64,000 nucleotides of DNA from Seriola aureovittata (Eukaryota > Chordata > Actinopteri > Carangiformes > Carangidae): assembly GCF_021018895.1 (NCBI RefSeq), contig NC_079368.1, positions 9,236,001-9,300,000 on the forward strand, in the 5' to 3' direction. A program made the translations under genes and the position numbers. Below are positions 2,369 to 26,900 of this stretch, one piece after another (the first letter of the stretch is position 1; every line of letters starts with the position of its first letter). The notes below the pieces were generated by a model. It did no database searches. It had not been told where the DNA came from and saw only the letters and a list, made by a program, of their open reading frames with translations.

Positions 2369-3256
2369 TCAGTTTCCTGTTTTAGCTTTGGCACCGACCG
2401 ACTTTTTGCGCTGAGTCAGTGGGGGGCAAGCCGGGGGGAGTGGCTTGAGGCTATGGTACGGCTTATTTCCTGCTAAGGAGCGAGCTGGATCTCTGGGTAG
2501 AAATCGAGAGCTCACGCCCTTCGAGGAGGCCAGTGTCTCTGATTTGGCTCGTGGGCCGATGATGACGGGAGCACATGTTTTAGGGATGATGGTGGTCATG
2601 GTCCGAGTCAGGACTCTCCCTCTTCTGGACGCCAGTGAAAGAGCTACTGGAGGCTTCTGTTTCTTGTCTGCACCTTTGCTCTCCTGTTGCTCTTTGAGAT
2701 GTGTGTGTGTTTGACTGTGGGATTGCCAGCTCCTCATCTTACACTCCAAGTCTTTCAGAGCCTTCACAGTGTAGTCCTGCATTTCTTTACGCGCCTGTGA
2801 AATCTGCTCCTCAAACTCATCCCTCAAGGCTTTTTTACTAGCCTCAAGCTTTTCCTCAAAACGTGCACACAGCTCCTGCTCTTTCAGATCCGTCTCATCT
2901 TTGCTCTCATCTGTCGACATCTCTGCTTGCCTCTTCTCTTCACTGTTGACATCTTCGCCCTTAGGTTCACTGTTCACCTGTGCCATCTCCATTTCCCTGT
3001 CTTTGACTCTTTTCACTAGCTCCAGTATGCTGCTCTTCGGAGCCTTCGCACCCACTTGTGATCTGATGTGCTGACGTACCTGCTGGAGAACAGAGTGCAT
3101 CTTGGCTTGTGTCTCCTTTTCATGCGAGCATTGATTATCCAGAGTGACAGAAGAGATCTGCTCCTCCACTGTAGCAGCCTCAGCGCCCCGCTGTTGCTCC
3201 TGTTCTTCACCGTTCACCAGTATCTGTGGATTTGTTTCAGAAGATAATTCACTCAT
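2369..3256 (-). CDS. Intronless charged coiled-coil protein, family not recognised
   Basis: A single uninterrupted frame of 295 residues starts at the ATG at 3254-3256 (MSELSSETNP). The frame stays open upstream to 3373, but those extra residues are low-complexity and the internal Met is preferred. I do not recognise the family. The central part, about residues 60-210, is rich in Glu, Lys, Gln and Arg with heptad-like Leu/Ala spacing (for example KAPKSSILELVKRVKDRE and FEEKLEASKKALRDEFEE), predicting long coiled coil. The C-terminal ~85 residues are basic, Pro/Ser-rich and probably disordered. There is no signal peptide or membrane segment. Lack of introns is unusual here and could mean a retrogene. 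Two X-box-like sites about 420 bases upstream hint at RFX control and a ciliary role, which is inference only. Confidence 0.65.
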   Translation of the reverse strand: MSELSSETNPQILVNGEEQEQQRGAEAATVEEQISSVTLDNQCSHEKETQAKMHSVLQQVRQHIRSQVGAKAPKSSILELVKRVKDREMEMAQVNSEPKGEDVNSEEKRQAEMSTDESKDETDLKEQELCARFEEKLEASKKALRDEFEEQISQARKEMQDYTVKALKDLECKMRSWQSHSQTHTHLKEQQESKGADKKQKPPVALSLASRRGRVLTRTMTTIIPKTCAPVIIGPRAKSETLASSKGVSSRFLPRDPARSLAGNKPYHSLKPLPPACPPLTQRKKSVGAKAKTGN

Positions 3257-3672
3257 TTTTGCTCCTTGTCTCGACAGCTGTATCTTGAACTGAGATACTA
3301 CAATTATGTGAGAAGTGCTGACGTGGGAAGGACCTAATTGACTGAGGTGTGTGTCCTTAGGGAGACTGAACATCAGGGGATTTAGGCCTCCAGTCTCGTG
3401 TAATGCAGTGTAATGTATAAGGAAAACACTGGTGGTGCAACAGCAATGAATGCAAGTTAAACCAGTTAAATGACCAAATCTATCAACATTCAGAATTTAC
3501 AGGCAGATGAGATTAAACGGCTGGAATAAGTTCTCTCTGGTAAAGCAGCACTCAAGTGTAATGTCAATGTAACTCGAGTGGCACTTAAACCACAACAACA
3601 AACTACACCTCCCATATCACTCTATTAAATTATAACAGCTACAGTTAAGAAACAAATCTGTTGTGTGTAGTT

Positions 3673-11628: not shown

Positions 11629-14600
11629 TTTTGGTGATATAGGTAAACTGAGCCTAGCTTTGGTATTAATATTTTTCATATATGCAAATGGGGACGTGCA
11701 CTTATAAAAAGCAAGTTACATACAAACATACATATCTAATGAGAGCGGTCCAGGACTTACATACTGATGAAAGACTTTATTGTTCCTAACAATATAATAA
11801 GTAGTTTGGGAATGCTAGCAGTTGTCAAGTAATTACTATCAAATTCTTTGGATTTAAAAGGTTTATATAAGCTTCTTTCAAGTGGAAAGCATGGGGGCTT
11901 TCAACTGAGTGTGCTTGTCTTTATACTAACACCTTACTTACCTTCAGCTGATTGAACCTGACCAGGTCACTATCACAGCTGAACGAGGACAGCAGGCGGC
12001 GCTGTTCAGACCTGAAGTCAGATCCAGCACGCAGCAGGGAGGTCGGTTGTTGGGCGGGGATGGACGTTCCCTGCAGGAATAAATGTTGACATTAAACACC
12101 GAATGGAATAAACCGGGCAGTGAGATCATCACAGTTTTCCCTCTTTAATACCTGAGTACTGAGCAGCCTTGTGTTGTTGAGGTATTTCATTTTGTCCTTC
12201 CTGCTGATTTTATAGAAGCCTTCGCTGCGAGCAGAGCCGGTCCTGTGATTTCGCTGCCAGGATTTGTGCTCCTCACTTTTTTCTACGAGGACTTTAGTCA
12301 GTGAGCAACAGTTAAGGATGTCAAGCACAGAACTAACAGTACAATGCAAATTTAGTATATGTGCATATATTGAATTTCCATATATGATATATTTTACACG
12401 TATGTTACGTAAATATATATCCATCCCAAAGCCTGTTAATATATTTCCAAACGCTGACACCACTTTCCTAGAATGGGGAGATAGACAAGTTTAAAATGAA
12501 TGAGAAATTAATAAGAAGAAACACACATGAGCATATAGAATTTTTTATATGTATGTTGTTTAAATAAACTTGCAGATATGAATTGAATTCATATTGTTAA
12601 CATATGTGGTAGTAACATATAATAACATAAAAATTCATCATAAAGATTTTTTTTAAATATGTACGTATATAAATTTTACCATAGGTTTTTCATATATGTT
12701 ATAAACTTCATAACTTCATAAATCCTGAGGATGTATGGATGTGATAATAACATATCCCCTTATAGATTACATGTTTATATGGCAACATGACTCTTGTTAC
12801 AGGGACATATGTGTCATATATTACTTTTCTGTATCAATCACTTACTGATTTATCAGAATTCATCATTTATTTGTAAATGAATGTTTTAATAACAGTACCT
12901 TAAGCATTTTAATGTTAGGGGTTTCAATATTTTTTCTAAAAAATCAGGATTTAAATATAACGTAATATTTTTTCCAGAGTAAATATAAAACATTATGGAA
13001 TTAATCGCAGTCATTTGTGCACGATACAGTGCAACCTATAAAATAAACAAAACTATGTATACATTATCAGTTAGTTCACTTACTGTAAACTCACTCTGAT
13101 CTAATTTCATTTTAAAATGAGACTCTGTTAAAAAGGATATGAGGGTGAGGTATCCAGAGAGTGTCACTGAGCCACCCAAAGCCATTATCCTGCTCGTGCA
13201 GCCTTTCATATGTACTCTGCAGCAGCCTTGCATCTTCTTCATCCAGACCCTCTTTCCAAACACTGTGAAGGATTCTCCCCTCTTCATACAGTGAACGCCA
13301 CCTGTGAGGACGACTGTGGTAGGAGAGTGAACCAGTGATTCTTTTACGTGATCTCTGCTGATGGTGGTTTCTCCATCTCCTCTTTAGCCTCCTCCACTGT
13401 TTTCGCCTAGATAAGGATTTCTCCTCATCCAAAAGGCCGGGCATATTCTCCAGTCCCTGCAAGGGCTTCGCTCTCACACATGAACTGATCCACACACCCC
13501 TCCCATCATCAATGTCAGATGCGGATTCAGTAAGGCTGCATGGAGAGGACACTGTGATGGGAGAGCCTCCGAGAGAGTCGTCAAACAACAAGGAGGAGGC
13601 CACCATTGGCGTTTTCCTCCTGTGGGCGTCTGCTATTCGGGTTAAGATAATGTCTCTTCCAGGAGTCTTTGGGGCTGTTATATAAGGATTACTGGACAGG
13701 GATGGAATAGGTGGAGGACTGCTAAGAGGTGGGCACATCACTGTGCTACCGTCTAACATTGTCATCGCTCTGCCAGGTGTTGCTGGAGCTCTCCCAGAGC
13801 CTTGCTGAGGCCATCCACTTCTCTCCTCTCTGCCAGGGGTTTTAGGTATATCCTGGTAGAATAGGTATGGGGCTGCTGGGAGATCAGAGGGAGCTAGAAC
13901 AAGCTCACTGCTCACTGGAGAGAGGGACAAGACTTCATCTGAGTCCTCACTTTCCAGTTCAGCCACTATGCCCTTCCCTGGTGTTTGTGGCCGTTCCACT
14001 TCCTCCACAGCAGGAGATGTTGGTTTGCTTTTTATCAGAAGGTCAGGGTCACTGTCCACCAGGCAGCCAGTCGGAGTGAGAGGCCTCAGATTTTCTATGG
14101 TTTCTAGAGACTCCACCGTCCACTCAGGGCTCTCCATCTCCACATCAAGGTCTGGCTCCACTGCTGCACAGATAAATAACAAAGAATTATTACAAAATCC
14201 TATTTACATCATTCATTCAATGGTTTTGTTAAATTATGTATAGAACATACAGCTTTTTAAAAATGTTTCAAGGGTAATCTGTGAACATTAAAATCCTGCA
14301 TGCTGAATGTTCAGTCATTAGATGTACATCTGTTAATACTTTGATAGTTATTTTTATCCTCATTAGTTGCCAGAATATTTGGGAAAATCACAGGGAATTT
14401 TTGCACAGCAATTTCATAAACTTTGACCGACATGAAACATTATTGGAAAATCATGCTGCAGTCAACTAATTCGATCTACAGCATGCTGGACATATAACCT
14501 GGAAGTCCTAGAGGTGACGGAGGCTGTAGGTCCTGGGGTTCTCTTGGTTGGAGCTCCATCAAGGCATCCATGTCACAGGTGTGTTGTTGACAGGATGTGT

Positions 14601-17600
14601 ACTGGCTCTCTTCTCTTTCCCCCCTTTGAAACGGGTCTGACCAGTCCTGCATGCACAGATCTAGCTGAGCACCAGGGGTTAGCGGGGCGGCAGAGTTAAG
14701 GGGAGGCCCAAGCTCCATTGACTCTTCATCTGACAATATCACGATACACTCGACACTCCTGTCGTCCTCGTCGTCCTTCTCCATGTCTTCATCTTCGGGA
14801 CTGAGGTTAGAGGAGGACGAGTCCTCAAAGCTCTCTGAGGATAACGAGTCCGAAGAGTCAAAGTCTGACGAGTACTCGCTTTCCCCTGAGGAGCAGCTCT
14901 CTGAAAAACTATCTGTAGTTGAAAACAGAAACAAAAATATTCACTAATAGGTACGTGATTCTTCATTAACTTTCAGCGTTTCAACTAAATTACATCATGA
15001 CCTACCGCCATCTGAGCACTGCGCTCCATCACTAATGTGGGAGATGACGGCTACTTGATCCTCCAAGTGTTTTTGTGCCACTGTGTTTTCTTCCTCGGGA
15101 TGATTACTGTCATCATCATCATCATCATCATGATCTCTGTCACACTAAATAAAAAGTTTTCTTTTAAAAAACTGATAGCAAAGTAGAGGCACCACAATGC
15201 AATTCAGAGTTTAAAAAAATTCCTATTCACCAGGTTTTGAGGAGCATCGTCATCTGGCACAATATCCTCAGCTTTATCTGATGTCATTTCTTCATCTTGA
15301 ATTGGGTTAGCCGCTTCTTTCCCTTCAACATCATCATCATCATCATCATCACTGTCAAGCTCGTGTGGTCTTGCGTGTCTGCGTTTCTGTTTCACTGTGT
15401 CATCCCCCTGTTTCACATCTAAAGCTCCATGGAAGAGAGAAACATAGCTGATCAAGCTTTAGTTGAGAATAGACAGGTGAAGAAGTTAATATATAGTATA
15501 TGAGGGTCAGGAGCATTAAAAACACTGACCAGAATTTTCATGCGTAGAGGACGACACATTTTCTGTCTCTTTTATAGTAGCACTATCATCGGCTCTTTTC
15601 CTTTTTACCTGCATAACAATAAGTTATTTTACATTACATTAAATTATGTGTCTCTCAGAAGTTAAATGCTGGTGTGTTTCATAGTACACTGAGCAGAGTA
15701 GTTTACCTTGAAGGACGGTAGTGGAGGCTTTTGGCCCTGGCCACTGATGTGACTGAGGGGATTTGTTTGTTTCTTCGTCTCTTCCACACTTCCTGATCCA
15801 CTTTTCAAAGGAGAAACTTGTATCTTATGAATAGAACAACAAAAATAATAAAGTTACTGAGTCCAAAAGTGTACTGCCATTAAAATGTGGCAACGGACAC
15901 AGAAAATACATGTGGTTTCATTGACCAATGTGAAGAACTTACCTTTGTCTTCTTCTCCTGACAGTCCCACCAGTCCTCAAATGCCTTGAAAGCCACTCCT
16001 TCAATCATTCTACGTGTAATGTCCTTCTTAATGATTGACTTCAGCTCATCCATGAGGACTTCTAAAACTTTTTCTGCTGTGACCTTGTGAGGGTCTTCCC
16101 GCACAACCGTGTAGTCTGGTGGTGGCACAAAGGGGTTAAACCTGGGAAAAGGTGGAGCGGGCCAGGGTGGTCGAGGGAATGGTAAAGGTGCACTGCCATG
16201 CTTCGGAGGATTCCCCTTATCCAAACGGCCTTCGGGCTGCATGGGTAAAGGGTACGAGTGCATGGGAGGTGGAACAGAGGGCGGCACCATCAAAGGTGGA
16301 GGGGGTCCCAGAAAAAGGGGTGGGGGAGGAATAGAAGGAGGAGGTGGAATAGGAGGAGGAGGAATGGGTATGCGGATGTGATGGCCAGGAGGGGGGATCC
16401 AGCTTGGAGGTGGGATGGGGATGGTGCCATTTGGAAGGCGAGGGGGGACTGGTGGAATAGATGGAGGAAAGGGTGGGATGGGGAAAGGGAAAGGGGTGAC
16501 TGGTGGAATGGCAGGAGGAGCTTTGGGTCTAAGGTGTTGAGAAGAAAATGACAAGGAATGAGGAAGAGAGATGTCTGTTGTTGGTGTCAGAGCTCCAGAT
16601 TGTCTGTTGGTTGTTTGCTCCTCATCCTCATCTGCTGCATGATGCTCCTGAGTATGATGCAGAGAAATCTCAGTGGGTGAATTATAGCACAACAGAAACA
16701 CTTTTAAATAGACAATAACTACTACTTTTCTTATTGTGATGTATGTAGAGATCTAGAGGAATTACCTTTGGAACAGATAATGACTGGAACCTTTCTGCAT
16801 CTTTTTCGTTGCTTATGTGCGCCCTCCTTTCGAAATGCGTGGGATAAGATGGAGTGGGAGATAGGGAGTTTCTTTTAAGAAAAAAAACAGCTTGAGTAGT
16901 TTCATCATCTTCATTTTCGTTGAGAGATGTTAGACTGACATTCACCAGATCATTGTTGGATTGCTGGTTGCTGCCTGCAAGTGGTCCAGGAGAAATCAAA
17001 GTGCAAACAAGTGAGTCATCTGAGAGAGGGGAGTTATTAGCTGAGCAAGGTGAAGTTGGGCTGTCCTGAAAGTGCACATCAGCCTGCAAAGTCTGTCTAT
17101 CAAAGTATGAGGGGTCAGTGCTCTGGCTGTTTATCAGCAAATTTTCAATGCGGGAATCCAAACTTTCTACCTCTGCTTGGGGGCTGCTGGAGAAACAGTT
17201 TACAGCAGATGGAGATAAGTCTGTTATGCATGCGTGGTCGTCAGGGGGGAAGGACGCTGCTGTCTGCTGGTCAGATGTGAAATTAATGCTCAGGATGCTG
17301 ACAGAGTTACAGTTCAGAGGTAAAGTCTTAGAGGCATCAATGACGACGTCTCTGGACTCTTTACCGGGGGAAGCAAGGTTAAAGGAAGGTTCTGTATCAT
17401 TGTGAGTGGAGGATTGTGCACTGTGACCCCACAGTGCAAGCTGCTGGCTGCTAGTTTGTATTTGGGTAGAGAGGGTGTGCGGTGGCTGTGGTTGGCAATG
17501 CTTCAAAATTAAGCTGACATCTGAGACTTCACCAGATCTCCTATGATACCTCGCGGGTGTGCGATGGCAGAGCTCTCGTCTTAGAGGTTTGTGAACACTA

Positions 17601-18981
17601 TAGGTTGAAGGCTCCAACTGGAGCACCGGAGTCGCCTGAAGACTGGAGTAGCAAGAGTCCTGGGAGAGAGGAGTCGCAGACAAGCAGGGAGTGTGGGGGG
17701 TTCCCTGAGAATGTGGTGTAAGCCCAAAGCTGCAAGGCGTATCCTGCCAAATACTGGAGTAAGCTGTGTCCAGAGAGAGAGGTGTAGCAATGCTGGTGGG
17801 GCTGGAGACACTTCCCTGTCGCTGTGTGGCTGCACTGCCCTGTAGGACAAACATAATACAGAGAAAACATGAAAACAACTGGGAAATATTATCCTTAAAA
17901 AACCCATTCATTTCACAGCTGGTTTATAAATACTGAATAGACAACCACCTTGATGTTCAAACCACTACAAGCAGCTTTAAAATGTTTACCAGCAAACTGT
18001 TGATCAAGCTTTGAAGAGCTTGTTCACTGCTGCCCACTGGCAACGTCCAAGGAGTATAAAGGCCACATAAGAGGAGCTGGAGATATCGCGCCCTGTTTTC
18101 CCCTGAGGAAGGTTACATATTACAGTTAGTCAACACATTCAACTATTGCACTTTCACCATATATAAATGCAAGGTATTCCTTATATCAGCTTTACCTTTA
18201 GGATCAATTTCGACATGAATAACATTTCCCATCACTGACGTCTGATGGAGATGCTGGACAGCGCCTTTTGCAGCCCGCACTGTGTCGAAGATAACCTTTG
18301 CAATCCCTAAATGCTTCCTGTTTTTAGGATTGTAGAATATTTCCACTTCTTCAATATTCCCATATTTTTTGCACATATTAGTCAAGAAGGCCTCCCTGAC
18401 ATTGTCATTCAACCTGGAAAATGTCACTTCTTTGGGAGGAACAGGGCCGACATACCATTCATCAACCTGAAAAGACATAGGTGGACAACAAAAACAACTA
18501 TTACTATTTTTTTTTATTATTATTTATTTATATCATTATTAGTACTAGTAGTAGTAGTATTTTATTAATTATTCATTATTACCATTATGTTGAAAAATTA
18601 CCTTAAATTTAGGCACTGAAAGGTCACTCTTATGGCTTTTGCTCCACAGGCGGCAGATGCGAGGATCTCTGACAGTATCAACAGGAAACAGACCTAAGTC
18701 CTCAACCTGTTGAGGTAAACAACACCCATCCTTATAATGGGAAAGATATACGCCTGTTTGGCACAACGTTATAGCTGGAAAATATACTTAAACGCTATTA
18801 TTTATAAGAGACAGACAATAAAGAGATATTTAAAAATGCTCACGGGTATGTTAAAGTATTGTCCATCATAACGGTACACTTTGTACAGTCCTTTTGTCAA
18901 TGCAGGGTCAATAATCAACTTGCAACTTCTCCAGGGCTGAGGCGGCGTCTCTCTCTCAGTAGTTTGTTTTTCGCTTTCCAT
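10538..18981 (-). CDS. setd1b: Histone H3K4 methyltransferase SETD1B (COMPASS)
   Basis: Catalytic subunit of a COMPASS complex that methylates H3 lysine 4. Seventeen phase-consistent coding exons, 5' to 3': 18981-18844, 18706-18602, 18466-18196, 18102-17990, 17839-16766, 16647-15943, 15823-15707, 15608-15530, 15418-15231, 15144-15006, 14912-14499, 14163-13141, 12300-12152, 12070-11942, 11355-11236, 10988-10851, 10711-10538; about 1691 residues, shorter than the human protein (about 1966 from memory). Order: N-terminal [11 protein letters not shown] block; RRM (residues about 82-171, [15 protein letters not shown]); proline-rich region (about 600-760); acidic and Ser-rich stretches; n-SET with WDR5-binding WIN motif GSARSE (about 1477-1482); SET with FINHSCNPNC and YDYKF; post-[11 protein letters not shown], ending RGSLN. 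The intron 12301-13140 is AT-AC. The acceptor at 14160/14163 is NAGNAG, so one Ala may be optional. Confidence 0.95.
11588..11632. repeat. Poly(A)/(TA)n microsatellite in a setd1b intron
   Basis: A run of A followed by about eleven TA units. Confidence 0.9.
12301..13140 (-). other. U12-type AT-AC intron of setd1b
   Basis: On the minus strand the exon ends in a C (13141) and the intron begins ATATCCTTTT (13140 downward), the canonical minor-spliceosome AT-AC donor. Near its 3' end is TCCTTAAC, the U12 branch-point consensus, about ten bases before the terminal AC (12302-12301). No GT-AG pair keeps the reading frame here. This pair joins ...[11 protein letters not shown] to [12 protein letters not shown]..., matching the known layout of SETD1 just before the WIN motif. 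Length 840 bases. Confidence 0.88.
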
Positions 18982-19330: not shown

Positions 19331-20628
19331 AAATATAGATCCTTTGGCGAGGCGGAAGAGCACACAAATTGTAAAGTTTGTACTGAAAAGAGGCGGCGTT
19401 GTAACCTAAAACAAAAGAGTTTTTCCTATGTCTGATGAGAATAACAGTGTTCAGAGATTTAAAGATTAGACAAGATAGATTTAAAATCGGAAAAAAAAAC
19501 ATTTATCATTAAATTAATTGTTTCTCTCCCCCTTTGAAGAGGGTTGTAAAAACTGGCCAATAGTTGACCCTAGTTACTGACCCATGGGATGAGAAGTAAG
19601 AAGCAAGAATTGTCAAAAATAAGTCTACGATCATTTGGAATGAATGTTTCAATTCGTTCATGAAAATGCACTGAAATGTAAAATGGCCCACACAGTACAT
19701 ATCTTGGTCACTATTCTTTGACAAAAACAAGCTTTACAGACAGTGTTATAAAGTGCAACAAAGCTCAACTACATTTAATTTAAGCTGAACTTGTCTACAA
19801 GGAGTAAGTTCATTTTCAGAGACAATATTTCTCCATTGAATTGATGCATTTCTGCAAATGCAGTTATGCAATGATCACAGCTTCAAATACACTCATATTC
19901 TCTTTGCACAGTTCCCTTTACTTTTCCTACAAGTATCACGTAGGAAACACAGTTTGTAAAACATCTAACAAAGTACAGACTTCACAGAGGTTTGATAACT
20001 GCTGACTCCATACTCAGTATAGTCACATATGAAGGACCACACCAGGTTGTTTACCTGGCATTTGCCAAAAGACAGGGGTAAAGAGAGTATATATGAAATG
20101 CAGATATGCTGTAGGTAATGTAAAGGTAAAAGTATTCACATAAGGCTGTGCATAATGTGAGTTGGGAAAATCTGCAGAGAGATTATAGTTGTCCATCTAT
20201 GATGTGCTCATATGGAGAAAACAAACTGCAGAAAATATTTCATTTTCAGTGGTGTTTTTCCCTCAAATTTGGGCCTGTTGTTCATAAAAACGCATCAAAA
20301 CAAGAGAAGAACTGTAAAACAGCTGGCCCAGATGTCATACAGCTGTATAGGACCAGGTCAGTGCCCACATCCTGACACCAATTAACATAACTCAATTCAT
20401 ACATTATTTTCATATTGTTTATATTATCTAACATATTATTTGCAATTATCTTTCCAACAAATGATCCGCAATGAGCGGATCATTTGTTTGTTGTTGATCC
20501 CTATGCAAGGTCATGTGTCTCAAATAAATTCAGTATATGGGACTTTGCACATATGTACATAATTTTTAGGCCTAATTTTGTGCACATGCTAGACCAGGTT
20601 TCTACATTAAATGCTTTATGATGTTTCT
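19331..20628. other. Intergenic, no gene seen
   Basis: AT-rich sequence without a supported gene. The only structured element noticed is a hairpin at 20455-20493. Confidence 0.5.
20455..20493. repeat. Short perfect hairpin
   Basis: An inverted repeat with arms CAAATGATCCGC and GCGGATCATTTG and a five-base loop. It is extended by CAA/TTG with a small bulge. Confidence 0.8.
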
Positions 20629-20741
20629 AATAAAGATGTGTTTAATCAAATTATCACACACTAACATAAATGGTGTTAGCCTATTTCAGTTTAGAAGGAC
20701 TGGATGGGCTAATGGGAAACTGGCAAGAGAACATACAAGAT
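20629..20741. repeat. Upstream copy of a diverged direct repeat
   Basis: Matches 23835-23957 in the same orientation: AATAAA, then TCAAATT, CACTAACA/CACAAACTAACA, ATGGT, GGACTGGAT, GCTAATGGGA and ACATACAAGAT in the same order and spacing, with many substitutions. The pair brackets the unrecognised spliced locus. Confidence 0.75.
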
Positions 20742-20949
20742 CATCTTTTCTACTGGTGGGAGGAGTGGTCAACGTTGTAAACTTAAATATGGGTTTGAAC
20801 TCTGTTCCTTTTTGTCCGGACGTCGCCATGTTGATGGAGGAAACCTGTCCAGGTAACATGAACGTGAACGTTCCATGGTCGCCCTGTTTGGTTTCCAGGT
20901 GCATCATTTGGACCACATCATCAATTTGAAAGTAAACAACCGTCCAACA

Positions 20950-23857
20950 ATCAGAAAAAACAGGCATTTCGACTTTCACTCGAAAGTTTCGTTGAAAAGG
21001 AGAAATCCACCTGCGACTTTTTGCACCTAACGACCTACTGTCACTGACAAGAGGACTTTTTTCAAGAAAGACGTGAGATAACGTTATGTATAGTTGTTTA
21101 CGGCTAACTTATGCCGTATTTATGTGTTTAGTTACAAATGAGGCGCAAATATGAACTAAAACATTCGTTATTATTATTAATTATTATTAATGATAAATAA
21201 TTAATCTGTTTAATCAGTTTTCACAAGTAGATCCTGATTGAATTTTGCCATTAACATGTATTCAGTCATGTTACAATAAACTGTGTTGTGTACACTTTAT
21301 TGGTGCTCCTACTTTAAGGCCTCTTTCACTAGTAACACTCACCTATTTGTGTTTACTTTAAGTACTCATGCACTTTGTCCTGGGTATAATTTGATGCATA
21401 AGTTATTTTTAGAGTTTTATTGTGAGTGTTAATGCATTGTGCTACTTCAATGATGTGATGACATTTCCATTAAGTAATTATGGTTAAACAGTTCATGGTT
21501 TGTTTATGTGATATGGAGCGTCTGAAGGTTGTATTTGTTTCCACCTTCAGATGGAGCACCGATACACCTCGACAACGGACCTCGTTCAAAGCCCCACCCA
21601 GCCAAACATCCCACGGATCATCCGCCGTAGGGTCCCAGCACCAGCCTCCAACAGTGGATCCCCACATGGCTCCCCATCTGGTTCCTCCCCTGGATCCCCA
21701 CTTGGCCCCGCACCCTCACACTCTGGCTCATCCTCCCAGGCTGCTGTGACACCCACTGAGCCTCTGGCGGCGTGCCCTCCTGCAGGACCTCAGTCACCCC
21801 AGTCATCCAGTGAGCCTGGGCTGTTTGGGAGCCACCCTGAGCCGGACTGGGCGAGGAACGTCAGGCTTCTTATGGAAAGGAGGGAGCCTTATGACAGCAT
21901 GGGGCGCAAGAGACCTTTTAAAAAGTTTTATTTACAGTCTGAGGCTAATCCTCAAGGTAAGTCTCAAGGTAAGCGCCATAGTTATTTCATTTGAACTGAA
22001 TTTCTTTGAATAGAATGCATTTGAATCAAATGTGTCATAATTTCTTTGAATTTCTTTGAATCAATTTGATTTTAATTACTTTGAATGCATCTGAATTGAA
22101 TGCATTTGAATCAGTTATCAATTTGAATTGAATTGCTTTGAATTTCTTTGAATTGAATGTCTTTGAATTAATTTGAATTTCATTGACTTCAATTGCTTTA
22201 AATTTAATTACTTTGTATCAGTTTAATCTGAATTTAATTGAGTTGCTTTGAATCTATTTCATTGATTTAATTGATTTGAATGAAATTGAATGATATTATA
22301 TTGCTTTAGATTAAGGGTCAGTGCTCTGGTAAGTATGATGTTCTTGTTGCTGCACCATGACTCAGGCAGGGAATCTGCATGGAGCGAGTGTTTTCTGGGA
22401 GGGATAGCGTGAAGCTCCTCTGTGTCGGAAAAAGAAAAGGATGGCGACACCATGTCAAGGGGGTTCATATGTCTGTCGACGCCCACCCTCGACCAACAGG
22501 AGTCTCCAGTGACAGGGACTTCAGAGCAGGGGTGCTCAATAACAGTTAGGAGAGGAGAGGAGAAGAGCAGAGGATAAGAGAGGAGAGGAGCGGAGGAGTG
22601 GAGGAAGAGAGGAGAACAGAGGAGGAGAGGAGGAGAGAAGAGGAGTGAAGGAGAGGAGTGGAGGAGAGGAGAGAAGGAGGGAGGGCAACATGATGTGTTA
22701 ACCCTCTCATGTAAAGGTAAATATTTCATGTTATTATCAGATTTTATGCAGTGATGAATTAAACATCTTTTGACCTGATTTCTAAAGTTTTTAACTACAA
22801 TCTGCTTGTGTTTAATTTTCCTTTTAGAGGGATGATGGGAGAGGAGAGGAGGAGAGGAGAGGAGGTGGGAGGGAATATGACATGTGAACCCTCTTTCAGT
22901 TTATCTGATGTTTTTACCAGGTTTTATGAAGTTTAGTTTTCTGTTGTTCTGTTCTTAAGATATTTGAAGTTTTTAACTATTACTCCCTTTTATCTGCCTT
23001 TTATTTTTATAGAGACAAGAAACAACTAAAGAACTGAGGAAAAAAGACATTATAATGAGATGAGAAAAAGCGAGAGGAGAAGAGAGGAGAGGAGGAGGGA
23101 GGGCAACATGAAGAGTGAACCTTCTCATGTAAAGGTAAATATTTCATGTTATTATCAGATTTTATGCAGTGATCAATTAAACCCCCTTTTACCTGATCTC
23201 TACAGTTTTTAACTACAATCTGCTTGTGTTTAATTTTCCTTTTAGAGGGATGATGGGAGAGGAGAGGAGAGGAGGGGAGGAGAGGAGGAGAGGAGAGGAG
23301 AGGAGGTGGGAGGGAATATGACGTGTGAACCCTCTCAGTCAAAAAGGTAAATATCAGTTTATCTGATGTTTTTACCAGATTTTATAAAGTTCAGATTTCT
23401 CTTGATCTGTTCATAAGTTATTTGACGTTTTTAACTATTACTCCCTTTTATCTGCCTTTTATTTTTACAGAGGAGAAACAACTAAAGAAGAAAAGACGTG
23501 AAGAGAAGAAGAAAAAATACATTTTAATGAGATGAGAAAAAAAGGAGAGGAGAGGAGAGGAGGTAGGAGGGCAACATGACGTGAATTCTCTCAGTCAACG
23601 CGGTAAATATCAGTTGATTTCATATATACATTAAATGATACTTGTGAATAATCAATTTGATCACTGTTATTCTCTGAGGATTTAACTATTATTCTCCCTT
23701 GTCTGTATTTGTTTTTTTCAGTAAGAGGAGAGAAGAAGACACAATTAAAGAAGAAAGAGAGACTGAAGAGATGAGAAAAGAAAAGGACAAAAAGGAGAGC
23801 GGATGAATGAAATGAAATATCAAATATGACTGTCAATAAAAATGAATGAAAAGTTGC
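20950..23857 (+). CDS. Unrecognised spliced gene with one Ser/Pro-rich coding exon
   Basis: Family not recognised. A probable first exon ends at a GTGAGA donor at 21073. The main coding exon starts directly with ATG at 21551 after a strong acceptor (TTTCCACCTTCAG). It codes MEHRYTSTTDLVQS, a low-complexity Gly/Ser/Pro segment (about residues 27-70), then a denser basic-aromatic block (DWARNVRLLMERREPYDSMG, RKRPFKKFYLQSEA) that looks like the conserved part. Two donors occur 12 bases apart, at 21957 and 21969, each preceded by CTCAAG; reading through stops at 21994 (147 residues). Downstream there is a series of purine-rich exons and short introns and a poly(A) signal at 23835-23840. Joining the first donor to the acceptor at 23470 would add a Lys/Arg-rich tail (EEKQLKKKRREEKKK) before a stop. 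The true exon chain needs transcript data. Confidence 0.5.
21989..22310. repeat. TTTGAAT-type minisatellite
   Basis: Degenerate tandem copies of 10-12 bases around TTTGAATT and TTGAATGCA across about 320 bases, in an intron of the unrecognised locus. Confidence 0.85.
22540..23835 (+). repeat. Tandem exon/intron cassette array (GAGGA-rich exons)
   Basis: A purine-rich block (AGGAG/GAGGA units) followed by a short AT-rich intron-like segment is repeated about five times. Intact intron-like segments with conserved ends lie at 22717-22827 and 23135-23245 (type A, 111 bases each, opening GTAAATATTTCATG and closing CCTTTTAG) and at 23347-23470 and 23603-23721 (type B, 124 and 119 bases, opening GTAAATATCAGTT). 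A further type B copy ending at 23012 has lost its donor. The double unit recurs at offsets of 418 and 468 bases, measured on the GCAACATG landmark at 22686, 23104 and 23572. A and B types are themselves related (CAGATTTTAT, TTTTTAACTA). Confidence 0.85.
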
Positions 23858-23957
23858 ATTTCATCAAATTGCCACAAACTAACACGAATGGTATTATTCC
23901 ATCTCAGCAGGACTGGATATGCTAATGGGACCTTGGAGGCAAAACAACATACAAGAT
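23835..23957. repeat. Downstream copy of the direct repeat
   Basis: Partner of 20629-20741. It begins at the AATAAA that appears to end the unrecognised locus. Confidence 0.75.
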
Positions 23958-26900
23958 AAGTTTTTGAATTTTTTTACCAGATTTGACCAGTTTATATATC
24001 GTGGTTTTTGACCCCGGACCTGGTCCAACGTGGTCGTGACATGAAAAAAGCTGTGAAATCTAAATTTTTTGCATTTTCACAAATAAAATGTCTACCTAAA
24101 ATGTCTTGATTTCACAACATTAAGAGGCGCAAACAGCACCATAATGTGGTGACTGTGTGCATCTTAAGTCATTAGAGCTTCATACGAATTTATCATGAAT
24201 TATTTTGTGTGCACAAGATAAAAAATGTCACCTTACTGGAATTTAGCGTCTCCATAGGAAAGGGTTGCAGATGAGTTGCATAGTGTAGTGTCTGGTAATC
24301 CAGTTCAAAGAGTCACAGTAGATACAATACATTTGGAATATCTATTTACATATCAATTAGTATGTGTATATCTATATAATAATACAATGTATTTAAAACA
24401 ATATAATTCACAATATATATAGTAAATTATATGATATGATAGTGTTGTTAAATATAATAATAATAATCAGCTTTAGATAGCTATAGATAGCTAAGAGCTA
24501 TAGATGTAATGATTAGACATTCAGTGCAGTGTTGTAGCTAACACAAGTTCATATGACGCTGTTCAAACACTTGAGATATTCAGACAGGAGTTGGAGCAGT
24601 CCATTAGGAGAAGGTGGGACTATTTGTTTGTGTGTGTTTCAAAGTGTGATGTCCCAGAAAGCATTTCCAAAACTTTTCATCTGTTGATAACCCTAACCCT
24701 CCCCCATGGTGGTGTTAAACTGACTTGTAAGTAATGCAGCCTTTCTTCGGGGCTTCTACAGCAGTTTATTGCTGGGTTATCTCTACAGCACACAATATAC
24801 ACTGCCAGGACCAAAAGTTCCCTGGAAGCATCCATCACCATCTGTCTCTCCAAAAAACATGACCAGGAAAGGATAAGGAGCAAGCAGAGGAAACACCAGC
24901 CAGCAAGAAGAATTCAAGGTTGTTATTGTTGGAGAAAGGAAAACCTTGCTACTCACAGTTTACACTAAAGGAGTCTTTCCAGAGGTGAGAGACTCACAGT
25001 GGAGTGCAACTGTACAGTTGTCACTGACCATTTGCTGTTACCTATGTGTAGTTAGGATTACTTTTGTGAAGCAATATTAGTGTGTAATCACAGGATGAAA
25101 TCATTGGAAAGTAACATATCTGTGGGAATAAAACTCTGTTCTGACAGGGTGAAGAAGCGAGAAGGAAAATCTGTGCTGTGCTGAACCTGGAGGCTCTGCC
25201 AAATACCGGGGAAATGTGGACGACTGATTTAGAGAAGGAACAAAACAAGCACTAATGGCCACAAGAGCACAGGAAAAAGTCAGACAGCGGGGAGTTTGTG
25301 TCCCTTGTCCCTTGTGATGCACACTCATGGCTCTGACTGGCTGACAAGCGTAGGCTACACTGAAAGTGCATGATCGGACACTTTTCCTGTGTGGGTTCAC
25401 TCTTGACTTCCTGGTTTAAAATACATTTGTCTGCGAAAATACAGTAGGTTTGTTTATTTTTACTTTTTTTGTTTTCTATTAATGCAAATATACAAATAAA
25501 AATGAAACACTGACATATCATCTTAAATGTGTTTTATTCAAACTGGCAACAAATTTCCTGGAGAGACTTACCAGGTGAAAAAAGCTGCAGCTTCTTGAGC
25601 TGCTAACACCACACATAAGTAAAACTTCAAAATACAGTATTTGCTGATAATTCACTTTGAAGCTGTGTATTCACACAAGCAGTGGAACCTGTCTATATAC
25701 AATTCCACACACTGGGTTAAATAAATAAACCACAATAATGAACCAAAGAAACTTGCCTTTGCTTGCATTGATCTGTGTTTAAAGAAGGCACATAGAGAAT
25801 ATTCCTATCACAAGTGTACCAGAGTGTGTGCAGTCGATCTGCATTAACCTGTCTATTTAGTTCCTGTAACAAAGTCATAAAGACAAACAACAGTGTGGAG
25901 AAGGGTAATGATCATTTTACTAAACAGTCTGAGAGTTACCAACCCCTCGTGGCTCCTTGTTCTCTGCTACGTGTCCCAGAGATGTTACTATCTGCACAGG
26001 AGAATTTGAATCCAAATTTAGGGAGCTTGTGGTCTACAGATGGTATTACATTACCATGACTCATCATGAAACACGTATAGGGGGTGGCTAATACAGACAA
26101 AACTGACATGGCACTAATGACTGCTGCATTACCTTGGTATTATGTTACAATATAAATCACATGAGACATATTCAAACTCATGTTCATGGCATAGATTAGA
26201 AATGGTTGTACTGTGTTTGCTGACCAAAAGACAAAACATATTCTCATGTTGTGTTTTGCTAATTCAACATATTTAGGGATTCATATTTTGGGATATGAAA
26301 ATGTTCATATATCATGGCAGTATCACACATGCCGTGTGCACACATTTCTTCTTTTGAGTTTATGTACTAATTTTAAACTAACTACAAGAGAAAAGTTAAG
26401 AAAACTGTCAAACACGTGTAGAACAATTCAACAATGTGCCACAGGACAAAAACAACACACTCTATGTTCCGCACCTTAAAAAATCCACAACCTAAAAGTG
26501 ATCATGCTCAAACTTGTAAACTATGAAAGGTACAAAACATACAAATTTAGACACAGTTCCAATACACACATGCTTTGTAATAACACATTTAAAAATACTT
26601 CTTCAAAACCAGTAACTATTCTTTGGATTACAATATGTTATAATTGCAAAAGCAACATGAGATCGAGCAAATTTCTCAATTTTTTTATCCGAGATTGTGT
26701 TTCCTAGAGAATGACTCCTCTGAAAAAAGAACAATGAGTCTTAAACACAGACGTAACCATCTGGCTCAAAATGCTGCCCTTAAATATTCACTTTGATTCC
26801 CATCAAAACCTTGCTATAAAAATATGTGCACTGTAATACCACAATTTGGTTAAAAGCATTCCCTGACCAGTATTTATTTTTAAGAGAAGTTCCTTTTGCC

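What the first reader, a model, noticed from the sequence alone, without database searches (positions are those of the whole stretch)
22540..23835. Tandem array of exon-plus-intron cassettes with GAGGA-rich exons
Purine-rich blocks alternate with 111-124-base segments that keep intron ends (GTAAATAT at the 5' end, pyrimidine tract plus AG at the 3' end) in four of about five copies; one copy has lost its donor. GAGGA units resemble purine-rich exonic splicing enhancers. Whole splice-competent cassettes, rather than exons alone, seem to have been amplified, which could generate many alternative 3' ends or a repeat-derived non-coding RNA. I know of no described system like it.
Basis: partly seen in the sequence, partly recalled or inferred. 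Interest (0 to 1): 0.75.

Follow-up and report, generated by a model that had tools for sequence, protein, structure and literature searches.

The report
Duplicated purine-rich exon-intron units in fish
In a bony-fish genome, a short stretch made of a purine-rich block plus a small intron-like segment has been copied several times in a row, probably by exchange or slippage in the purine tracts; it is a real and neat example of a known kind of duplication, with no evidence yet that it is transcribed or does anything.

Summary
At 22540-23835 (+) six purine-rich blocks alternate with five related AT-rich segments of 111-124 bases. Four of the five begin with GTAAATAT; all five end in a pyrimidine-rich stretch plus AG and share TTTAACTA, a branch-point-like motif. 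The segments are one family. The newest visible step copied a two-unit block (A1-E2-B1-E3 to A2-E4-B2-E5). Block E3 is a hybrid, left half E5-like and right half E1-like, joined in the purine run, which points to unequal exchange there. Segment B1 lost its donor in a 17-base gap.

The array lies 3' of a tandem donor (21957/21969) ending a possibly coding exon with no relative found, in a teleost, between SETD1B and ORAI1. In all 96 modelled splice paths the stop falls in the first array block used, so the array would be 3'-UTR or non-coding. AATAAA occurs once, at its end, so "many alternative 3' ends" is not supported; alternative acceptors are more likely. Conservation of intron ends is suggestive only. 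Transcription and splicing are untested. Tandem exon-intron units (LPA KIV-2), locus-restricted exonic repeats (FIRRE) and a minisatellite supplying splice donors (G1P3) are precedents.

The parts
21551..21956 (+). Possibly coding exon upstream of the array (135 open codons; two donors 12 bases apart, GT at 21957 and 21969)
   Evidence: ATG right after the acceptor; in-frame codon score 0.494 against 0.294 (sd 0.054) for 500 shuffles, 0 of 500 reach it; a frame of 138 codons (21551-21964) stays open in 12 of 500 shuffles. Against: array block E4 scores 0.480 in one frame, so the score is not specific. Donors 12.44 and 11.17 bits. No relative found in Pfam, PDB or the protein database at E of 1 or better.
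22540..22716 (+). Purine block E1 (10 GGAGA); no strong acceptor upstream of it
   Evidence: no acceptor of 9 bits or more between 21969 and 22827
22717..22827 (+). Intron-like segment A1, GTAAATAT...TTTTAG
22828..22895 (+). Purine block E2
   Evidence: copy of E4
22896..23012 (+). Intron-like segment B1; donor lost in a 17-base gap relative to B2; acceptor and TTTAACTA kept
   Evidence: alignments
23013..23134 (+). Purine block E3, hybrid: left half like E5, right half like E1
   Evidence: split by hand at 23069/23070: left 57 bases score 56 to E5 (44/53), then E1 18, E2 15, E4 13; right 65 bases score 87 to E1 (57/63), then E4 71, E5 62, E2 60
23135..23245 (+). Intron-like segment A2
   Evidence: 104/111 identical to A1
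23246..23346 (+). Purine block E4; one frame open throughout, but not the frame reached from the upstream exon
23347..23470 (+). Intron-like segment B2 (strongest acceptor of the five, 12.96 bits)
   Evidence: 107/117 identical to B1
23471..23602 (+). Purine block E5
23603..23721 (+). Intron-like segment C, weak donor
   Evidence: 77-79% identical to the other four over aligned bases; donor 5.55 bits
23722..23840 (+). Block E6, proposed terminal block, with AATAAA at 23835-23840
   Evidence: E6 head against E5 head: score 47, fraction 0.001 of 1000 base shuffles; AATAAA

Best explanation
A purine-rich exon with its neighbouring short intron, in the 3' part of a transcript that runs away from SETD1B, was multiplied in stages by unequal exchange or slippage between GGAGA tracts. 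Because breakpoints fell inside purine tracts, each copy carried a complete intron with donor, branch-point-like site, pyrimidine tract and acceptor. If transcribed, the strong donor at 21957/21969 would be joined to one or more of the five acceptors, giving alternative non-coding 3' exons before a single AATAAA at 23835. Shown: the copies, the most recent duplication, the hybrid E3, the lost donor, the stop codons in the modelled paths. Inferred: the exchange mechanism, transcription, splicing, and any role of the GGAGA blocks as splicing enhancers.
For: Family relationship of the five segments; dimer duplication, 31 substitutions in 414 aligned bases plus gaps; hybrid E3 with its switch in the purine run; array donors and acceptors in the top 0.1-1.7% of the GT or AG sites of the + strand, except donor C at 4.7%; GTAAAT and AG kept in A2, B2 and C, TTTAACTA kept in all five; upstream exon with a coding-like score and a 12.4-bit donor.
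Against: No transcript data. No relative of the upstream exon in a protein set that returned many fish proteins for ORAI1 (control), so the host gene may not be real; its codon score is nearly matched by block E4 (0.480). Acceptor-like sites of at least 9 bits are almost as frequent on the minus strand of the array (4) as on the plus strand (5). Conservation of ends depends on the boundary chosen, and the tract from TTTAACTA to AG is not better conserved than the interior across A2, B2 and C (12/28 against 20/55, P = 0.37). No strong acceptor for E1.
Confidence: 0.5

Rival explanations
1. Untranscribed or unspliced complex tandem repeat: a GGAGA-rich minisatellite whose longer unit happens to include AT-rich spacers that look like introns. 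The shared ends are inherited from one ancestral spacer and nothing uses them.
For: Segments are copies, so four donors count little more than one; AT-rich spacers have pyrimidine runs anyway, and the minus strand of the array has 4 acceptor-like sites; other tandem repeats lie nearby, such as 21997-22281; B1 lost its donor; the B pair alone shows no significant protection of its 3' end.
Against: GTAAAT and AG unchanged in A2, B2 and C while 20 of 55 interior columns are (GT and AG are partly true by definition); substitutions avoid the ends in the A pair (P 0.02 to 0.15); an upstream donor of 12.4 bits and a downstream AATAAA in the right order.
Confidence: 0.35
2. Coding gene in which the purine blocks encode a repeated E/R-rich protein segment, as in known genes with repeated coding exons.
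For: Blocks read as E/R/G-rich in some frames; E4 is open throughout in one frame with a codon score of 0.480; the upstream exon looks coding.
Against: In 96 of 96 modelled paths the stop lies in the first array block used; block lengths mod 3 are mixed: 122 and 101 give 2, 132 gives 0; codon scores of E3, E5 and E6 are low in all three frames, at most 0.077.
Confidence: 0.05
3. Regulatory DNA: the purine/pyrimidine tracts matter as DNA structure or factor-binding sites near the SETD1B promoter, irrespective of splicing.
For: CpG observed/expected of 0.91 and 1.25 at 20750-21249, between the SETD1B N-terminal exons and the array, suggests a promoter region; long purine tracts.
Against: Does not explain the kept intron ends; the array begins 1.3 kb beyond that stretch. 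No chromatin data on hand.
Confidence: 0.1

Closest known systems
LPA kringle IV type 2 repeat (human)
   Same: Whole exon-plus-intron units multiplied in tandem (passages of PMC11462820: two short exons and two introns per unit, 5.6 kb, 1 to about 40 units).
   Different: Coding, large units; here the units are about 0.2-0.46 kb, contain stops and include purine repeat blocks.
FIRRE lncRNA local repeats (RRD)
   Same: A repeat largely restricted to one locus makes up many exons of a non-coding RNA (passages of PMC4820808: 7 of 13 human and 11 of 23 mouse exons).
   Different: FIRRE local repeats are defined as discontinuous and its RNA is established; here a compact head-to-tail array, transcription unknown.
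G1P3/IFI6 minisatellite with multiple splice donor sites
   Same: A tandem repeat that multiplies splice donors in a transcript (only the title was seen, in the reference list of PMC2572611; the paper itself is not held).
   Different: There donors only, as I recall; here donor, branch-point-like site and acceptor together.
[quoted passage not shown]
   Same: Tandem duplication across an intron-exon boundary makes a new splice-competent intron (abstract of PMC4974935).
   Different: There the new intron joins a formerly exonic piece of one copy to the intronic piece of the other; here an intron-like segment appears to be copied whole with a purine block.

Membership tests
Tandem exon-intron duplication | Adjacent homologous copies that include both exon-like and intron-like parts | tested here: met
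Tandem exon-intron duplication | Splice signals kept in most copies | tested here: met
   donor in 4 of 5 segments (one of the four weak), AG with pyrimidine-rich stretch in 5 of 5
Tandem exon-intron duplication | Copies are transcribed and spliced | not testable with these tools
   no RNA data on hand
Coding exon repeat (LPA-like) | Open frame through successive copies | tested here: not met
   0 of 96 modelled paths cross two array blocks without a stop
Repeat-rich lncRNA (FIRRE-like) | Repeat restricted to one locus | tested here: inconclusive
Repeat-rich lncRNA (FIRRE-like) | Non-coding RNA with the repeat in its exons | not testable with these tools
   no RNA data
Intron gain by tandem duplication | New intron formed at least partly from formerly exonic DNA | tested here: inconclusive
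   Segments match one another and differ in composition from the purine blocks, and self-BLAST lists no block-to-segment match; the origin of the first segment is unknown.

The most novel reading that the evidence does not exclude
A GGAGA microsatellite that brings its own splicing enhancers and carries introns along acts as a copy-number-variable switch: individuals with more units offer more acceptors and 3' non-coding exons to one strong donor, so that repeat length sets the share of transcripts with exon junctions after the stop codon and hence, by nonsense-mediated decay, the output of the gene.
Probability: 0.08. Interest if true: 0.65.

Novelty: new member of a known kind. Interest (0 to 1): 0.3.

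Why it matters
If spliced, the array would be a small, clean case in which a recent duplication, a broken donor and kept acceptors can be read from one sequence, useful for asking how fast introns keep or lose function after copying, and whether purine repeats in exons help new introns to stay spliced.

Tried and rejected
Protein homology for the upstream exon: 53 and 141 word-sharing candidates, none at E of 1 or better (candidates limited by length to 0.55-1.75 times the query). PDB and Pfam: none at E of 1 or better. Rfam: none at gathering score in the window; no tRNA. Exact 29-base probe from segment B: 0 matches in viral contigs and genome contigs, collections where a fish locus is hardly to be expected. 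The idea that E6's AATAAA sits at the place of a donor: E6 tail against E4 and E5 tails is not better than base shuffles (fractions 0.123 and 0.102 of 1000), so dropped. Coding repeat: disfavoured. Dispersed introner-type elements (recalled): disfavoured, since self-comparison of the window finds no copy outside the array; the rest of the genome was not searched. Older tandem copy of the gene upstream of 20.6 kb: nothing but the 118-base flanking repeat and short weak matches, best E 0.022.

Literature: nine searches. I saw only the rows listed (5 to 15 per search, out of 788, 29, 100, 67, 0, 5, 42, 7 and 22 papers); none of the listed titles or abstract openings describes an array of this sort, which does not show that none is in print. 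Passages seen: PMC4820808 (12 of 13 places), PMC11462820 (12 of 13), PMC2572611, PMC7554774 (12 of 13). Abstract and outline only: PMC4974935, PMC3151243 (the latter on intron insertions in fish genes; not used). No paper was read whole.

Errors corrected: one search used exon ends one base short (21955/21967) and E1 starts one or two bases late; with those wrong ends 4 of 96 paths ran into E6, two of them through E4; with the right ends 2 of 96 do, those that use E6 alone. My note gives 36-43 bases for TTTAACTA to AG; one search gives 38 or 41 from its first base and 33 or 36 from the presumed branch A. The codon-score training set (1635 codons) includes two stretches (14476-14900 and 16682-17850) without domain support: the longer frame holding the first (14476-14940) had no Pfam match, and the second was not searched.

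Full report
Setting. The window looks teleost: ORAI1 lies on the minus strand at 28.0-28.6 kb (Pfam Orai-1, E = 6e-53), and the named entries at the top of its list of 120 (of 1557 matches) are fish. SETD1B N-terminal exons lie on the minus strand at 18.0-18.9 kb. CXXC and F-box exons on the plus strand at 36.7-39.9 kb and an RNF34/RFFL SAP exon on the minus strand at 48.8-49.2 kb I read as KDM2B and RNF34; those names are my reading. The finding sits between SETD1B and ORAI1, on the strand opposite to both. CpG observed/expected is 0.91 and 1.25 in the two 250-base bins at 20750-21249; among the other bins from 19500 to 24499 the highest is 0.83 at 24000 and the rest are 0.61 or less. A promoter there is a guess.

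What is there. Six purine-rich blocks (R = 0.77-0.85) alternate with five AT-rich segments (R = 0.33-0.41) from 22540 to 23835. The segments are 111, 117, 111, 124 and 119 bases long. Four begin with GTAAATAT; all five end with a pyrimidine-rich stretch and AG. All five carry TTTAACTA, whose presumed branch A is 33 or 36 bases from the 3' end (the branch-point reading is recalled, not tested). TTTAACTA occurs 7 times on the + strand and twice on the - strand of the window, so five of the seven + copies are here.

One family, copied in stages. In each of the 10 pairs of segments 0 of 300 dinucleotide shuffles reach the observed alignment score. A1/A2 are 104/111 and B1/B2 107/117 identical; the other pairs are 77-88% identical over the aligned bases, with many gaps. 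The last visible event copied a two-unit block: 22651-23142 matches 23072-23610 (80% over 551 columns), or 31 substitutions in 414 aligned bases plus gaps. Block E3 is the seam: its left 57 bases match E5 best and its right 65 bases match E1 best; I set the split by hand at the edge of the BLAST match, and the switch lies in the purine run. This is what an exchange between two GGAGA tracts would leave. It makes selection for splice-competent cassettes unnecessary as an explanation of why introns came along.

Do the intron ends look maintained? Between the dimer copies there are 7 substitutions in A and 10 in B. With the ends drawn in five ways, pooled permutation P was 0.023, 0.009, 0.116, 0.017 and 0.004; for A alone 0.06, 0.02, 0.15, 0.04, 0.02; for B alone (3' end only) 0.18, 0.18, 0.46, 0.22, 0.08. 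I chose these boundaries after seeing the alignments. Across A2, B2 and C, signal columns are invariant in 16 of 16 and interior columns in 20 of 55 (P = 2e-6), but TTTAACTA was picked because it is invariant, and GT and AG are partly true by definition. The tract between TTTAACTA and AG is not better conserved than the interior (12/28, P = 0.37). So this is suggestive, not proof.

Splice-site strength (recalled human weights). Donors A1, A2 and B2 score 8.64 bits (top 1% of 3888 GT sites on the + strand), donor C 5.55 (top 4.7%); acceptors score 9.46-12.96 (top 0.1-1.7% of 4292 AG sites). Upstream, 21957 (12.44 bits) and 21969 (11.17) form a tandem donor. No acceptor of 9 bits or more lies between 21969 and 22827, so E1 may not be an internal exon at all. 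The minus strand of the array has 0 donors of at least 8 bits and 4 acceptors of at least 9, against 3 and 5 on the plus strand.

Coding. The exon 21551-21956 is open with ATG first and has an in-frame codon score (0.494) above all 500 shuffles, trained on 1635 codons of frames in this window, some of them only presumed exons. The score is not specific: block E4 reaches 0.480 in one frame, which is also open throughout. Two protein searches found no relative of the exon, though the same database returned 1557 ORAI1 relatives. It may be a young or fast-evolving gene, or not a gene. In 96 of 96 modelled paths (two donors, eight candidate blocks or variants) the first stop falls in the first array block used. 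Under this model the array is 3'-UTR or non-coding. Paths with two or more blocks have a junction after the stop; decay of such transcripts is an inference from general knowledge.

3' ends. AATAAA occurs once in 22500-23900, at 23835; ATTAAA occurs at 22758, 23176, 23630 and 23744. Alternative acceptors with one common end are simpler.

Comparison. Tandem exon-intron units are known from LPA KIV-2 (passages). Local repeats forming exons of a non-coding RNA are known from FIRRE (passages). A minisatellite that supplies splice donors is known from G1P3 (title only). A new intron by tandem duplication: abstract of PMC4974935. GGAGAA as a splicing enhancer that SRSF1 can bind: passages of PMC7554774. 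What is particular here is the small size, the linkage to a GGAGA repeat and the lack of coding capacity in the modelled paths.

Verdict. Observation confirmed; interpretation partly supported; a new member of a known kind with untested expression.

Noticed in passing
20632-20749 and 23850-23965: A direct repeat of about 118 bases (73%) flanks the CpG-rich stretch, upstream exon and array; an AATAAA lies at or just before its start on both sides, perhaps a trace of an old duplication.
   Followed up: partly
21997-22281: AT-rich tandem repeat around TTTGAATTGAATT between the upstream exon and the array.
   Followed up: no
21655-21705: 12-base repeat (TGGATCCCCACC-like) inside the upstream exon, giving a G/S/P-rich stretch in its open frame.
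   Followed up: no
21957 and 21969: Two strong splice donors 12 bases apart in near-identical contexts (CAAGGTAAGT, CAAGGTAAGC).
   Followed up: partly
22758, 23176, 23630: ATTAAA inside segments A1, A2 and C, possible intronic polyadenylation signals.
   Followed up: no
2369-3496: Open frame of 375 codons on the minus strand with no Pfam family above its cut-off.
   Followed up: no
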